Below are positions 2,487 through 37,170 of a stretch of 41,409 nt of DNA, piece by piece (the first letter of the stretch is position 1; each line of letters opens with the position of its first letter). The stretch comes from Candidatus Levyibacteriota bacterium (lineage in GTDB: Bacteria > Patescibacteriota > Microgenomatia > Levybacterales > UBA12049). Where the stretch lies: contig JACPAR010000006.1 of assembly GCA_016180725.1 (NCBI GenBank), forward strand, positions 1 through 41,409. The letters are read 5' to 3'. The notes under the pieces were generated by a model, which saw only the letters and a list, made by a program, of their open reading frames with translations, was not told the origin of the DNA and made no database searches. The translations under genes and the position numbers were made by a program.

Positions 2487-2548
2487 GTTCAAAGTTGCCC
2501 TTTAATAGAGAGATCCTTCACTTCGTTTAGGATGACAGAGAGGAAATT

Positions 2549-6395: not shown

Positions 6396-6512
6396 CGTCT
6401 AGAAATTAGCGTTCAGCGTCTAGTTAGGAAAAAAAAATAACTGAACGCTAGACGCCACGTCAAACGTGGCAGTCGCGTTTGACCCGACGCTAGTAACTAA
6501 ACGCTGAAAATT
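6396..6512. repeat. TAGCGT-family composite inverted repeat with inner CCACGTCAAACGTGG module
   Basis: GCGTCTAG/TAGCGTTCAG units and their reverse complements; near-copy at 19609-19721. Confidence 0.8.
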
Positions 6513-6863
6513 ATGGAAGTAAGAGCAGAGAGTAAATCAGTTAGAATAAGTCCAAGAAAAGCGCGCTTAGTTGCTGGTGTGATTAAACAAAATACTTTGG
6601 CAACAGACGCGCTTGTAACGCTTTCGTTAATGGGAAGAAGGGCTGCTATAACAATTAAAAAAACTTTAGAGAGCGCTATTGCCAATGCTGTTAATAACGC
6701 AAAGTTAAAAAAAGAAGATCTTATTGTTAAGCGCGTTGAAATTCTTGATGGGACACCTCTTAAAAGGTATAGTCCGTCAACCAGGGGAAGAACTCATCCT
6801 TACAAAAAGAGAAGCAGTCATATAAGAATAATTTTGGAGGATAAATATGGGACAAAAAGTTAA
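6513..6863 (+). CDS. rplV: 50S ribosomal protein L22
   Basis: VRISPRKARLVAGVI...PYKKRSSHIRIILE. Confidence 0.95.
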   Translation: MEVRAESKSVRISPRKARLVAGVIKQNTLATDALVTLSLMGRRAAITIKKTLESAIANAVNNAKLKKEDLIVKRVEILDGTPLKRYSPSTRGRTHPYKKRSSHIRIILEDKYGTKS

Positions 6864-7491: not shown

Positions 7492-7662
7492 GTTAAAAGT
7501 TCAAAGTGCTCGCCTCGCGGCGAAGCGGGCAAAGTTCAAAGTAAAGGAAGGATTTATATATAAAATAAAGTACCTTCACTTTTAATACTTCGACTTCGCT
7601 CAGTATTATCCTGAGTACAATCGAAGGATAATTTTTAATTTTGAATTTTAAATTAATTTACT
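7492..7662. repeat. Composite spacer repeat (AAAGTTC units, GCTCGCCTCGCGGCGAAGCGGGC, CTTCGACTTCGCTCAG hairpins)
   Basis: Tandem hairpins 7584-7607 and 7608-7629; arms AAAGTTCAAAGT and AATTTTGAATTTT. Confidence 0.75.
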
Positions 7663-19619: not shown

Positions 19620-19721
19620 CAGCTAGCGTTTAGCGTTCAGTTTTCTTAACTAGACGCTAGTCGCCACGTCAAACGTGGCAGTCGCGTTTGACGCGACGCT
19701 GATAACTAAACGTTAAATAAT
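19609..19721. repeat. TAGCGT-family composite inverted repeat with inner CCACGTCAAACGTGG module
   Basis: Shares CGCCACGTCAAACGTGGCAGTCGCGTTTGAC exactly with 6396-6512; its left end supplies the rplM stop region. Confidence 0.85.
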
Positions 19722-20210
19722 ATGGCAGAAGAAAATATAAAAGAAGAAAAAGAACAAGTTCAGGCAAAAAAGGTTTCTAAAAAAGACTACGTTCACGCTA
19801 TAGGAAGAAGAAGAGAAGCTACTGCACGTGTTAGACTGTATACAAATGGTAAAGAAGTTAGTTGGGGAGATCAGGTTGTAAAAAAGGGAGAAATTTTTGT
19901 AAATGAAAAACCAATTGAGCAGTATTTTTCGGGTGAAGTTGCAAAATCCGTTTACATAGAGCCTTTTAGAACAACAAATACGATTTCTAAATTTACAGTA
20001 ACCGCAAAAGTAGAAGGCGGAGGAAAGCACGGACAACTCCAAGCGTTTGTTCATGCAATTTCGAGGGCACTTTCGGAGTTTAATACAGAAAAATTCCGTC
20101 CTGTTCTTAAGAAAAAAGGGTTATTAACAAGAGATGCAAGAGCAAGACAGCGCCGAAAAGTTGGAATGGGTGGAAAATCAAGACGAAAAAAACAATCACC
20201 AAAGCGGTAA
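19722..20210 (+). CDS. rpsI: 30S ribosomal protein S9
   Basis: YVHAIGRRREATARVRLY; RDARARQRRKVGMGGKSRRKKQSPKR. Confidence 0.97.
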   Translation: MAEENIKEEKEQVQAKKVSKKDYVHAIGRRREATARVRLYTNGKEVSWGDQVVKKGEIFVNEKPIEQYFSGEVAKSVYIEPFRTTNTISKFTVTAKVEGGGKHGQLQAFVHAISRALSEFNTEKFRPVLKKKGLLTRDARARQRRKVGMGGKSRRKKQSPKR

Positions 20211-22712: not shown

Positions 22713-23381
22713 ATGCCAGGAAGACTAACACCTTTAGTCAATGATGAAGTCTATCATATATTTAATAGGGGTATTAACAGGCAGCCTACTTTTACTACTC
22801 TGAGGGAATACCAAAGGGCTTTACTCTCAATAGAGTTTTATAGAATATCATCTCCTCCTATACGGTTGTCTAAATTTTTACAAGTAGATAAAGAGCGCCA
22901 GGCGCAAATTGCTGATATCATGGCTAAATCAGAGAAGCTAGTACAAATTATATGTTTTTGCTTAATGCCAAACCATTTCCATTTTTTACTAAAGCAGAAA
23001 AAAGAAAATGGAATTTCGAAATTTATAGCCAATTTTCAAAATAGTTATACTCGTTATTTTAACGTTAGAAATAATAGAGATGGTTCAATATTTTTAGACC
23101 AGTTCAAAGCCAAAAGAGTTGAAACGGATGAGCAATTGGTTCATGTCTCTAGATATATTCATCTAAATCCTTATACAGGATACGTGGTTAAGTCACTTCC
23201 TAAACTTGAAGAATATCCTTGGTCGTCTTTCCCCAAATACCTCAAAAGAGAAGACAATTTTACAGAACCTAGTTTAATTTTAGATTTTTTTAAGAATATT
23301 AATGAATATAAAAAATTTGTCTTCGATCAAGCTGATTACCAAAAGAAATTAAAAGAGATGGAACATCTTATTTTAGAATAA
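22713..23381 (+). CDS. REP-associated tyrosine transposase (Y1_Tnp)
   Basis: MPNHFHFLLKQ HUH motif, FIANFQNSYTRYFN Tyr motif, HLNPYTGYVVKSLPKLEEYPWSS. Confidence 0.9.
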   Translation: MPGRLTPLVNDEVYHIFNRGINRQPTFTTLREYQRALLSIEFYRISSPPIRLSKFLQVDKERQAQIADIMAKSEKLVQIICFCLMPNHFHFLLKQKKENGISKFIANFQNSYTRYFNVRNNRDGSIFLDQFKAKRVETDEQLVHVSRYIHLNPYTGYVVKSLPKLEEYPWSSFPKYLKREDNFTEPSLILDFFKNINEYKKFVFDQADYQKKLKEMEHLILE

Positions 23382-32235: not shown

Positions 32236-33255
32236 ATGCAGATAAGAGGTAAAACACTGTTTTTTCTATTTTTAGGAATTATCCTGCTTTGGTTTACTCA
32301 TGCTAATCGTGTGGTTTTTGCGCCTTTTGTTTTAGGTGCGGTTTTTGCCTATCTTGTAAATCCAATCGTCAATTTTTTTTCTCATAAAATTAAGCTCCCT
32401 AGAACATTAGCAATAGTAATAATTTATATTATTCTTATTGCTGCAATTATCTATTTGGGGGTATTTGTTGTAAAAAGGATAGCTGCAGAATCCGATGATA
32501 TTACTCGTTATGGCGTTAGTATACTAGAATCAGCAAGAACACAGGTAAACACTCTTCCAGATTGGTTGCAGCCAATAGCCAACGAAACTTTACTTTCTAT
32601 TCAACAATCAAGAATTTTATCTGCAACTTATCTGTTTACTTTATTTCCGCAAGCTATTTCCCGTATTGTAAGTTTTATTATTTTTGCCTTTTCTGGATTT
32701 TATTTTCTTAAAGATGGACATTTATTATTAAATAAATTAATAACTTGGTTACCAAATAAATATAAGAAAGACGCAGAAGTTCTACTTGAAAAAATTAATG
32801 GTGTATTAAGCGGATATTTAAGGGGACAGATGTTTTTAGTGTTTTTAATATCTATGATTTTATTCATAATCCTTACTATTTTTGGGGTTAAATTCTCTCT
32901 TGTTCTGGCTATTTTTTCTGGTTTTGCAGAAATTGTTCCGGTTATTGGCCCAATTGTTGCCGGAGCAGTAGCGGCATTTGTTATTTTAGTTACTGGTGCA
33001 ATAAATTTTTCTTTATCTCCTTTACAGGGAGCGCTTATTGTAGCACTTATTTATTTTGTTGTTAGACAAATCCAGGATTATTTTATTAATCCATACGTTA
33101 TGCATAAAATTACAAAATTGCACCCGCTTGTTGTTTTATTTGCGGCAATCTCTGGCCATCAATTGGCTGGAATCTTAGGTCTTATATTAGCGGTTCCAGC
33201 TGCGGCAACAATTAAGATTCTTTGGGATTTTTCCTTCAGTAAACTTAACGAATAA
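32236..33255 (+). CDS. AI-2E family transporter/permease
   Basis: VLGAVFAYLVNPIVNF, FAEIVPVIGPIVAGAVAA, QDYFINPYVMHKITKLHPLVVLFA. Confidence 0.9.
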   Translation: MQIRGKTLFFLFLGIILLWFTHANRVVFAPFVLGAVFAYLVNPIVNFFSHKIKLPRTLAIVIIYIILIAAIIYLGVFVVKRIAAESDDITRYGVSILESARTQVNTLPDWLQPIANETLLSIQQSRILSATYLFTLFPQAISRIVSFIIFAFSGFYFLKDGHLLLNKLITWLPNKYKKDAEVLLEKINGVLSGYLRGQMFLVFLISMILFIILTIFGVKFSLVLAIFSGFAEIVPVIGPIVAGAVAAFVILVTGAINFSLSPLQGALIVALIYFVVRQIQDYFINPYVMHKITKLHPLVVLFAAISGHQLAGILGLILAVPAAATIKILWDFSFSKLNE

Positions 33256-33261
33256 AAAATA

Positions 33262-33672
33262 TCCTAGGAAGAGAATAAGCCAGATTCTGTTTATCCTTCG
33301 ATTTCACTCAGGATAACCGCAATCTATCTAAGTTACGATATTTAGTCGTTACTTTCCGCCTCATCGGCGAAACGCCCTCAAACTTTGGTGCTCCCGTAAA
33401 GCAGGTACCCTTCGTCGCTTTCGCTCCTCAGGGCTATAGCGCACCGTTCGGAGGTTGCAGCGGGTAGGATTGCCCGTTTCACTCCCACTCGTCTCTGTTG
33501 CTCTCAAGTTCTGTTAATTCAGAACCTGCTTTAAGCTTCGCATGTGGGTAAAAAGCTTAAAGACCAGCTATTTCTAGTCGGAGCTTACGCTCCATCCCCG
33601 GCTTTACACCTGTCTGGACTTTCCTCCCTTCGTCGCTTTCGCTTCTCAGGGTAGCGATCCTTCTTCCTAGGA
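33262..33672 (-). ncRNA. rnpB: RNase P RNA (bacterial)
   Basis: Reverse complement contains GAGGAAAGTCCAGACAGG and ACAGAATCTGGCTTA; P1 arms CCTAGGAAGA/TCTTCCTAGG at both ends. Confidence 0.93.
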
Positions 33673-33755: not shown

Positions 33756-34220
33756 ATGCCTTTTCCAGAAAGTTTAGAAGTAAGACCGATACATACAATT
33801 ATTCCCTTTGGAAATAAAGGGGAATATATCCGTTTTGAGGGACAAAGATCTAACTATGATTGCGGTCAGACATGTCTTGATATGTTAAAGCAAGACGGTC
33901 ATAAATTTTTTCCAAAGGAACTCTCAGTTAAAGATGTTTTTGAGTTTATGGATATAGAAAAAGATAAAATTACTATTCTTGATGGTGAGGATAGTCAAGT
34001 TGCATACGACAGACCACAACTAGTTTTAATGAGAAAAGATAATAACCAAATGCATAAGTATCATTGGGTAATAAAATTAAGAGACTTAGTTATTTGTCCA
34101 TCTACTGGGGTTATGAACGCAGAGTCTTACCAAAAAATACACAATTTTATTCCAATATTGGCTTTTGAAGTGCCGTTTGGAGATTCTGCGAAGCGAACTC
34201 TTTTAAGAACAGCTGCCTAA
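33756..34220 (+). CDS. C39-like papain-fold protein
   Basis: NYDCGQTCLDMLKQ and YHWVIKLRDLVICPSTG resemble Cys and His regions of C39-like peptidases. Confidence 0.5.
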   Translation: MPFPESLEVRPIHTIIPFGNKGEYIRFEGQRSNYDCGQTCLDMLKQDGHKFFPKELSVKDVFEFMDIEKDKITILDGEDSQVAYDRPQLVLMRKDNNQMHKYHWVIKLRDLVICPSTGVMNAESYQKIHNFIPILAFEVPFGDSAKRTLLRTAA

Positions 34221-34221
34221 T

Positions 34222-37170
34222 TTATGCTGTTGTAGAGCAAAGCATTTTGTATTCACACTCGTGGCAAAATGTTGACTTGCTGCAGGCAAAATCGCTGGTT
34301 GAAATCTCTTGCACTTTTTGCATAATGTATTCTTTTACTTGTTTTAATTGTTCTTTAGTTCTGGTTGTAGTTAGTTTTTTATCATTACTTAAAAAATGAA
34401 GCGTTAGCAGTATTTCTTCGGGTTTTTTGTTAAAAATTTTGTCTTGAATTTGCGTTGCCGCCAGGGCGTAAATTGTTAACTGTAAATTTTTGGCAACTTC
34501 TTTTTCATCCGGAATATTATCGCTTGTTTTATAATCTATAATTTCAATTTTATTATCATTTGTTTTATCAACTCTATCTATTCTTCCGCCTATTTTTATT
34601 TTATTAACGTAAAAATTAAATGGTGTTTCTAAAGCAATTGGTTGGGATTTTAACTTTTTAGGGTCAAAATTATTTTTTACATATTCTGTTAAAATTTTCT
34701 TTGCGTGTTGTCTTGCTTCCTGCTCGTGGGTTTTACTTGTGTAACCTTCGTTTATCCAAACAGTGTCTAAGATTTGTAAAATAGTATCTGTTTTAGTTTT
34801 TTCATCATTTAAAAAATTGCGATAAAAATCACGCAGTGCATTATGTATGCTTATGCCAAAACTTTGTGCCGCTACTTGAGGGGTAGGAATTTTTAAAATA
34901 TATTTTAATTTATAATGCAATGGACAAATTTCAAATGTTTGAATTTGAGAATAGGAAATATAATTTAATTGGTATTTCGAAGTGTTGTTAATAGGGGTGA
35001 CTATACTTATTTCTTTTTTATTTTTTTCCTGCGCCCAATCCAAAAGAGAAGGCTGAATTATTATTTTTTTAATTTTTTGTTTATCAGTAATTTTTAATAC
35101 GTCTTGTTCTCCCAGTGTTTCATAAACAAAAGGAGAAATTTTACGTTCCCTTTTTCCTTCTCCATAAAAATTTGCAGCGGTTAAAAACAAGCTATCTCTT
35201 GCTCTTGTCATGCCAACATAAAAAAGTCTTCTTTCTTCCTGCAAGTGAAAATCACCAATAGGTAAAATTTCTTTAATAAGCTCTTGAGGAATTGGGATTT
35301 GTTCGTGTCTTTCTCTGGTTGGAAAACGCTGATTAACAAGATTAACAAGAAAAACTACAGGAAATTCAAGGCCCTTACTTGAGTGTATTGTTAAAATATT
35401 TACTGCGTTATTTTCGCTCCAATCCGTGTTTGCAGCTAACGGACTTTCTCCCATTTGCATTGATAAGTCTATCCAGTCAACAACTGCAAAAACATCTGCT
35501 TTTTCGTGTTCGGCTTCGTATGTTTTTAGCTTGTCAAAAAATTTCGCAATGTTTTGAAATTTTTTTTCATCTGTTTCCGATTTTGTTAAAAGCATTTTTT
35601 TTAACAGCCCGGAATCTTCTAAAAAATAATAAAGAATTTGTCCTGCAGTTTCTTTAGGGACGAGTTTAAGATGTTTTTTAATCATCTTTAATATGTTTTT
35701 TAGTTTTTCTTTTGCGTTATCTTTAAGAAAAATATTTTCGCTATTTTCAGGATTATCCAGTATTTCTAAGGCTTCAAAAAGAGTAAAATTTTTTCGTCTG
35801 GCAAAGTTTAAAAGCGCTGCAATCTCTAAAGCATCCAGCTCAAATATTTGTAAAGCCAAAACTCTGTAAAAAGAAGTTGAATCCTCAAAATTATAAAGTA
35901 CTTTAAGATAGGAAATTAAATCTTTAATTTCTTCCCGTTGAAAAAGTTGTCCGGGTCCTAAAAATTGGTAGGGAATATTAAAGCGTATAAGAGTTCTAAC
36001 AAAAGCCTGTGCATAATCATTAGCTCTTACTAGTATTGCAAAATCTTTATACTGATAGTTATTAGCTTTTAATTCCTGAATCTTTTTTACAACAGTTTCT
36101 GCTTCGTCTTCTACTCTCTCGGTAAAAATAAACTCAATTGGTTTACCTTTAATCTTTCGCATAGAGGTTAATTTTTTAATTACTTTTTCTTTGATTTCCA
36201 AACGGTCGGGGTTATTGTTTTGTATAAGAGCATAAGAACTATTTAATATTTCTTCTGTAGAGCGGTAATTTTTAGTAAGGGTTATGATTTTTACATTTGG
36301 GAAATGTTTTCTAAACTGAATCATATTAGAAATCGCAGCTCCCCGCCATCTGTAAATCGCCTGATCGTCATCTCCAACAACTGTAATATTTTGCTTTTGG
36401 CCGGCAAGAAGAATCGCCAAAGTATTTTGGGCAAAGTTAGTGTCTTGGAATTCATCAACCAATATATATTTGAATTGTTCTTGATAATTTTTTAGAATAT
36501 TTGTTCTCTCTCTAAAAAGTTTTAAAGTGTTAGAAATAAGGCCGGAAAAATCCATGAACCCTTCTTTAATTTTTAATTCTTCGTATGTTTTGTATGCATC
36601 TGCTAGCTCAAGATTTTTCCTGATTTCATCTTTATCAGCGTTTAGCGTATAGCGTTTAGCGTTCAGTTTTTTAGCATAGAGAAGATACTCATCGGGTGAT
36701 ACATCTTCGTCTTTTAATCTGCTAAAATGCTGAAGCATGCCCATAATAAATTTATTTGGATTACCAAGAGGTCTAAAATATTCAAGTTTAAATTTAAATA
36801 AATTCTGGCGCAAAAAGAGGACATTTTCTGCCTCGGTAAAAAGTTTATAAGAAGGGTTAAGGCCAATGTGAATTGCTTCGTTTCTTAAAATTCTATCGCA
36901 AAAAGCATGAAAAGTAGAAATCCACATTTGGGTGTATCCATAAGGCATTGTTTGGTCAATGCGTTCCTCCATTTCCTGGGCGGCTTTTTCGGTAAATGTG
37001 AGAGCTAAAATATTAATTGGAGAAATCTTTTTTTCAAGGATAAGGTATTTTATACGTTGTGTGACTACTGTCGTTTTCCCGGTTCCAGCCCCAGCGATAA
37101 TTAGAAGAGGGCCTTCTTCGTGCTTGACTGCCTCAAGTTGTTCGCTGTTGAGAATTCTTTCCTCTGACAT
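34222..37170 (-). CDS. UvrD/PcrA-like helicase fused to PD-(D/E)XK nuclease with Cys cluster
   Basis: AGAGTGKTTVVTQRI, VDEFQDTNFAQ, VGDDDQAIYRWRGA, GRIDRVD...IIDYKTS, C-x(n)-CHECEYKMLC. Confidence 0.93.
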   Translation of the reverse strand: MSEERILNSEQLEAVKHEEGPLLIIAGAGTGKTTVVTQRIKYLILEKKISPINILALTFTEKAAQEMEERIDQTMPYGYTQMWISTFHAFCDRILRNEAIHIGLNPSYKLFTEAENVLFLRQNLFKFKLEYFRPLGNPNKFIMGMLQHFSRLKDEDVSPDEYLLYAKKLNAKRYTLNADKDEIRKNLELADAYKTYEELKIKEGFMDFSGLISNTLKLFRERTNILKNYQEQFKYILVDEFQDTNFAQNTLAILLAGQKQNITVVGDDDQAIYRWRGAAISNMIQFRKHFPNVKIITLTKNYRSTEEILNSSYALIQNNNPDRLEIKEKVIKKLTSMRKIKGKPIEFIFTERVEDEAETVVKKIQELKANNYQYKDFAILVRANDYAQAFVRTLIRFNIPYQFLGPGQLFQREEIKDLISYLKVLYNFEDSTSFYRVLALQIFELDALEIAALLNFARRKNFTLFEALEILDNPENSENIFLKDNAKEKLKNILKMIKKHLKLVPKETAGQILYYFLEDSGLLKKMLLTKSETDEKKFQNIAKFFDKLKTYEAEHEKADVFAVVDWIDLSMQMGESPLAANTDWSENNAVNILTIHSSKGLEFPVVFLVNLVNQRFPTRERHEQIPIPQELIKEILPIGDFHLQEERRLFYVGMTRARDSLFLTAANFYGEGKRERKISPFVYETLGEQDVLKITDKQKIKKIIIQPSLLDWAQEKNKKEISIVTPINNTSKYQLNYISYSQIQTFEICPLHYKLKYILKIPTPQVAAQSFGISIHNALRDFYRNFLNDEKTKTDTILQILDTVWINEGYTSKTHEQEARQHAKKILTEYVKNNFDPKKLKSQPIALETPFNFYVNKIKIGGRIDRVDKTNDNKIEIIDYKTSDNIPDEKEVAKNLQLTIYALAATQIQDKIFNKKPEEILLTLHFLSNDKKLTTTRTKEQLKQVKEYIMQKVQEISTSDFACSKSTFCHECEYKMLCSTTA

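What the first reader, a model, noticed from the sequence alone, without database searches (positions are those of the whole stretch)
33262..33672. RNase P RNA variable helices contain near-identical repeat hairpins
Seen: CCCTTCGTCGCTTTCGCTCCTCAGGG (33408-33433) and CCCTTCGTCGCTTTCGCTTCTCAGGG (33626-33651) match 25/26 within one rnpB. A relative TTATCCTTCGATTTCACTCAGGATAA (33291-33316) lies near the 3' end. The same consensus (CCTTCGacTTCGCTCAGG) forms hairpins in spacers at 7584-7629 and 2513-2534. By position the rnpB copies fit peripheral helices (P3-like, P12-like, P19-like; inference). Suggests repeat-derived helices in an essential ribozyme.
Basis: partly seen in the sequence, partly recalled or inferred. 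Interest (0 to 1): 0.7.

Follow-up and report, generated by a model that had tools for sequence, protein, structure and literature searches.

The report
Repeat-built helices in RNase P RNA
In this small uncultured bacterium, three outer hairpins of the essential tRNA-trimming RNA (RNase P RNA) match, in part almost letter for letter, palindromic repeats scattered between its genes; relatives carry such repeats at various points of the same RNA, so repeat DNA seems to be re-used, again and again, as building material for a ribozyme.

Summary
A class A RNase P RNA gene lies at 33260-33670 (minus); it scores 42 bits, below Rfam's cut-off of 100. The two 26-mers match 25/26; the third hairpin (33291-33316) is 24/26 identical to a spacer hairpin at 7606-7631. 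The helices are P3, an EXTRA helix inserted between P16 and P17 (not P12), and P19. All share one plan: stem, GA, G-loop-C, GA, stem. This hairpin family is dispersed in the genome (34 near-copies, none in the reversed control) and forms the heart of a ~120-bp inverted-repeat element. Of 56 sister rnpB genes, 8 carry a GA hairpin (shuffles 0.1) and 13 a CCGAT..ATCGG palindrome (0.05), at varied sites, in both orientations, some as inverted doublets. Their genomes hold more copies of the same repeat (p = 0.002-0.006; 0.003). tmRNA of sister genomes has none (0/29 against 19/56). P19 is absent in 38 of 66 related genes and a P16/P17 insert in 42 of 59: natural empty sites. Best reading: palindromic repeats inserted into, and became, peripheral helices. 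The mobilising enzyme is unknown; RAYT-like transposases present carry other hairpins. Repeat-bearing rnpB is known from cyanobacteria: a new variant of a known kind.

The parts
33260..33670 (-). RNase P RNA (class A, rnpB), diverged
   Evidence: RF00010 42 bits, E 1e-11, model 1-367; below gathering score
33626..33651 (-). P3 helix made of the large form of the GA hairpin: CCCT-GA-G-AA-GC-GAAA-GC-GA-C-GA-AGGG
   Evidence: its 22-nt core (CTGAGNAGCGAAAGCGACGAAG) is a dispersed repeat in several phyla
33408..33433 (-). extra helix inserted between P16 and P17, 25/26 identical to the P3 hairpin
   Evidence: insertion in the Infernal alignment; 42 of 59 related genes lack any insert here; fold
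33387..33445 (-). P16 (GGTGC 33441-33445 with GCACC 33387-33391) enclosing the inserted helix and P17 (CCTGCTTTACGGG, 33393-33405)
   Evidence: the P17 loop GCTTTA can pair with TAAAGC upstream (P6), by inspection
33291..33316 (-). P19 helix: TTATCCTGAGTGAAATCGAAGGATAA, small form of the GA hairpin
   Evidence: 24/26 identical to window 7606-7631, C27:9391 and C36:8839; 38 of 66 related genes have no P19
7583..7632 (.). spacer copy: two GA hairpins head to head (TAATACT.. / ATTATCCT..)
   Evidence: 6 such doublets in the genome
7496..7660 (.). MITE-like dispersed element with outer inverted repeats (AAAGTTCAAAGT ... TTTTGAATTTTAAATT) around the doublet
   Evidence: alignment of six copies
2513..2534 (.). 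degenerate spacer copy of the TGTCATYCTGAG...CGAAGRATCT form
22713..23381 (+). RAYT-like Y1 transposase; its flanks hold other hairpins (CACCTGGGGGGTG / CACCTCCCAGGTG), not the GA hairpin
   Evidence: PF01797 E 5.5e-10, NF047646 E 3.9e-14 below its cut-off; flanks

Best explanation
Palindromic hairpin repeats that are dispersed in this genome and its relatives have inserted into rnpB at places where the folded RNA tolerates an extra or longer hairpin: the tip of P3, the P9 loop, the junction between P16 and P17, P18 and P19. Because the element folds on itself in the transcript, it becomes a ready-made peripheral helix and the catalytic core is undisturbed. In the window's rnpB three helices are such copies; the P3 and P16/P17 ones are near-identical, from one source repeat or from copying between the two sites. 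Shown: identity to dispersed repeats, empty sites in relatives, both orientations, inverted doublets inside rnpB, association with copy number. Inferred: that insertion (or conversion by the repeat) was the event, that the RNA still works, and that the helices are tolerated rather than selected.
For: 34 near-copies of the hairpin in the genome, 0 in the reversed control; 26 structural GA hairpins in 253 kb against 1-6 in Markov-shuffled sequence, 19 of 26 outside ORFs although ORFs cover 80%; P19 24/26 identical to three spacer copies; 22-nt core of the 26-mers recurs as a dispersed repeat in other phyla; empty sites at P19 (38/66) and P16/P17 (42/59); inverted doublet in the P9 loop of G058, where G000 reads the empty GACTAGAAATAGCT, a similar pair in the same loop of G045, and a doublet at another site in G010, which is of G058's genus; both orientations occur, so selection for the G.A motif in RNA cannot explain all of them; enrichment and association tests; tmRNA control 0/29 against 19/56, p = 0.0002.
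Against: The exact 26-mer exists nowhere else in the (80% complete) genome. rnpB holds only the 26-nt hairpin, not the whole ~120-bp element, and no target duplication was found. Association is only partly specific: CCGAT-bearing rnpBs also lie in genomes with more GA repeats (p = 0.016). Sister genera are far apart, so no fresh insertion is caught within one species. P19 GA copies share one orientation, which could mean that some descend from one event.
Confidence: 0.8

Rival explanations
1. Convergence: rnpB peripheral helices and spacer hairpins independently evolved the same stable motif (tandem G.A pairs, GNRA-type loop), because it is a good RNA (or ssDNA) structure.
For: The motif is an orderly helix with tandem G.A steps and a GAAA loop, and similar cores occur in several phyla.
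Against: Half of the GA-positive sister rnpBs (G010, G058, G026, G045) carry it in the opposite orientation, where the RNA would have U.C instead of G.A mismatches; the P19 stem and loop match dispersed copies 24/26; inverted doublets occur inside rnpB; tmRNA has none.
Confidence: 0.1
2. Internal duplication within rnpB: one hairpin (P3) was copied into the P16/P17 junction or the reverse, without any role of genome repeats at that step.
For: The two 26-mers match 25/26 and are the only exact copies in the genome.
Against: Near copies of the large form exist elsewhere in the genome (C9:13039, C36:1131) and the P19 helix is a third, differently stemmed member of the same repeat. It may explain the P3 and P16/P17 pair only, on top of the main explanation.
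Confidence: 0.3
3. rnpB is the donor: its hairpins spread from the ribozyme gene into spacers.
For: A hairpin in a conserved gene could in principle seed repeats.
Against: Spacer copies carry extra parts (outer inverted repeats, partner hairpin) that rnpB lacks, occur in genomes whose rnpB has none, and most relatives' rnpBs have empty sites.
Confidence: 0.03

Closest known systems
STRR repeats inside rnpB of heterocyst-forming cyanobacteria (Vioque 1997, known here only by its title in the reference list of PMC2858038)
   Same: genome-wide short repeats lie inside the RNase P RNA gene
   Different: those are short tandem repeats; here self-complementary hairpins, of several families, at several helices, with empty and filled sites among relatives
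Diverged RNase P RNAs of CPR bacteria (Lui et al. 2021, PMC8172020)
   Same: small genomes, rnpB below Rfam cut-offs, extended or missing helices
   Different: the passages read there describe lost or extended helices and do not mention repeats; here a source for the extra helices is given
REP / REPIN elements (PMC3116915)
   Same: dispersed palindromes, inverted doublets, single hairpins as remnants, in genomes with RAYT transposases
   Different: no RAYT found beside the GA hairpins, whose sequence differs from the RAYTs' own flanking hairpins; the doublet sits in a larger element with outer inverted repeats
Rickettsia palindromic elements (from memory)
   Same: palindromic repeats inserted into genes and tolerated in the product
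   Different: known mainly from protein genes

Membership tests
Bacterial RNase P RNA class A (RF00010) | full-length match to the covariance model with conserved core | tested here: met
   42 bits, E 1e-11, positions 1-367; but below the gathering score of 100
Bacterial RNase P RNA class A (RF00010) | catalytic activity on pre-tRNA | not testable with these tools
   needs transcription and a cleavage assay
REP / REPIN | short palindromes dispersed mainly between genes | tested here: met
   34 near-copies; 19 of 26 outside ORFs
REP / REPIN | inverted doublets as the repeated unit | tested here: met
   6 head-to-head doublets in the own genome
REP / REPIN | association with a RAYT gene flanked by the same REP | tested here: not met
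   8 RAYT-like genes, each flanked by other hairpins
MITE | terminal inverted repeats with sharp ends in several copies | tested here: met
   six copies aligned, ~120 bp, for the spacer element only; the rnpB copies hold just a hairpin
MITE | target site duplication and a matching transposase | tested here: inconclusive
   no duplication seen by eye; no matching transposase identified

The most novel reading that the evidence does not exclude
In this bacterial family the RNase P RNA gene is a recurrent landing place for several unrelated palindromic repeat families, and facultative helices such as P19 are repeatedly born from inserted repeat DNA, so that parts of a universal ribozyme are recycled selfish hairpins.
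Probability: 0.6. Interest if true: 0.65.

Novelty: new variant of a known kind. Interest (0 to 1): 0.52.

Why it matters
Where new helices of structured RNAs come from is an old question. Here the empty site, the filled site and the source repeat are all visible in sister genomes, so gain of a ribozyme helix by insertion of a self-folding element can be tested directly. It may also be one reason why rnpB in such small genomes is often missed by standard models.

Tried and rejected
P12 as the site of the second 26-mer: rejected by the Infernal alignment and the fold. RAYT mobilisation in cis: rejected, the RAYT genes' flanking hairpins differ. A class-wide pattern search for P19 insertions was too noisy to use: among its listed hits only the window's own fits rnpB clearly. 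A tree of rnpB is too weak to date the gains (it splits G010 from G058, which share a genus); GA-bearing P19s are scattered on it, with neighbours lacking them. Naming the organism: not reached; the 0.3-1.6 Mb genomes of the family and the diverged rnpB fit Patescibacteria (inference). Vioque 1997 itself is not held. A last fetch of sister stretches failed on a length limit and was not repeated.

Full report
Gene. The minus strand 33260-33670 is a class A RNase P RNA: RF00010, 42.0 bits, E 1e-11, model 1-367. It is under Rfam's gathering score, so the default scan does not list it. It lies between an AI-2E-type transporter gene (32236-33255) and a short unassigned ORF (33756-34220), then a UvrD-type helicase-nuclease (34222-37170). 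The genome is 768,608 bases in 44 contigs, 80.5% complete.

The hairpins. In rnpB sense: P3 CCCTGAGAAGCGAAAGCGACGAAGGG; between P16 and P17 CCCTGAGGAGCGAAAGCGACGAAGGG; P19 TTATCCTGAGTGAAATCGAAGGATAA. All have the plan stem-GA-G-loop-C-GA-stem, that is tandem G.A mismatches, twice in the large form (in P3 the inner step is A.A/A.G-like, GA changed to AA on one side). RNA folding gives the same kind of helix each time, z -3 to -4 against shuffles. The P17 loop GCTTTA can still pair with the upstream TAAAGC (P6); this is by inspection. Helix numbers follow the order of the Rfam model and my knowledge of class A RNAs.

Dispersed repeat. CCTTCGACTTCGCTCAGG has 34 matches with up to 3 mismatches in the genome, 0 for the reversed pattern. 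A structural scan of 253 kb finds 26 GA hairpins with stems of at least 5, against 1-6 in Markov-shuffled sequence, with many different stems; 19 of 26 are outside ORFs of 100 aa or more, although such ORFs cover 80%. A frequent form is a head-to-head doublet, six copies, inside a ~120-bp element with outer inverted repeats. The P19 helix is 24/26 identical to its second hairpin at window 7606-7631, C27:9391 and C36:8839. The 22-nt core CTGAGNAGCGAAAGCGACGAAG of the other two occurs, with other stems (mostly TGTCATYC../..GRATCT), in 70 stretches from Ruminococcus, Lachnospiraceae, Omnitrophota, Chloroflexi, Desulfurella, one Falkowbacteria record and others. In the window's own genome near copies with other loops lie at C9:13039 and C36:1131.

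Sister genes. I fetched rnpB from most of the genomes in which one search found it in the same family and order, and a few others. P19 is absent (7-9 nt linker) in 38 of 66 and otherwise mostly filled by hairpins of many sequences; the P16/P17 stretch is 24-35 nt in 42 of 59 and 41-79 nt in 17, one of which (G050, 79) looks misparsed. Of 56 same-family genes, 8 have a GA hairpin (shuffles: mean 0.105, maximum 2) and 13 a CCGAT-N3-5-ATCGG palindrome (mean 0.045, maximum 2). Sites differ: P9 loop (G058, G026, G045), P19 (G000, G017, G023, G054), P3 and P16/P17 (G000), another place in G010. G010 and G058 share a genus yet carry doublets at different sites. Four of the eight carry the opposite orientation, which RNA-level selection for G.A pairs does not predict.

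Association. Genomes whose rnpB has a GA hairpin hold more GA repeats outside rnpB (p = 0.0018 subtracting only rnpB copies that the count included; p = 0.0064 subtracting all). The same for the CCGAT palindrome, p = 0.003. Cross tests: GA-bearing rnpB against CCGAT copies p = 0.51; CCGAT-bearing rnpB against GA copies p = 0.016, so specificity is good one way and partial the other. These tests treat genomes as independent; most are of different genera. tmRNA from sister genomes: 0 of 29 with either motif (one of 30 loci was cut short), against 19 of 56 rnpB, p = 0.0002. Of these two structured RNAs, only rnpB was seen to collect the repeats; rRNA and SRP RNA were not tested.

Mechanism. Shown: identity, dispersal, empty sites, doublets inside rnpB. 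Inferred: insertion or conversion as the event, and tolerance because the element folds by itself. The mobiliser is unknown: the genome has 8 RAYT-like genes (one in the window, 22713-23381), each between its own, different hairpins. REPIN work regards single hairpins as remnants of doublets (PMC3116915), which fits P19 holding half of the doublet, but membership in REPINs fails on the RAYT link.

Known ground. STRR repeats in cyanobacterial rnpB (title only, via PMC2858038) and diverged CPR RNase P RNAs with extended or missing helices (PMC8172020). I found no report of dispersed palindromes as rnpB helices in small genomes of this kind, in a library that lacks most subscription papers. A text search for the repeat's letters found nothing relevant.

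Noticed in passing
window 6438-6519 and 19647-19728: Another palindromic repeat (CACGTCAAACGTGG ... CGCGTTTGACGCG) sits in spacers; the same palindrome (CGTCAAACG) stands in the P18 region of sister rnpB genes (G012, G016, G017, G050).
   Followed up: partly
window 6394, 16134, 19610, 36636: AGCGTCTAGC/AGCGTTCAGTT repeats of 32-50 nt, four copies, partly palindromic.
   Followed up: no
window 22713-23381: RAYT-like Y1 transposase, one of 8 in the genome; each is flanked by its own distinct palindromes.
   Followed up: partly
L225 (own contig C3), near C3:4318 and C3:13434: Copies of the doublet element in which a further palindrome is nested inside the second hairpin.
   Followed up: no
L123-L192 (Ruminococcus RUG10751 and others): The 22-nt GA-hairpin core is a high-copy repeat (TGTCATTCTGAGGAGCGAAAGCGACGAAGAATCTT) shared across distant phyla; its spread is unexplained.
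   Followed up: partly
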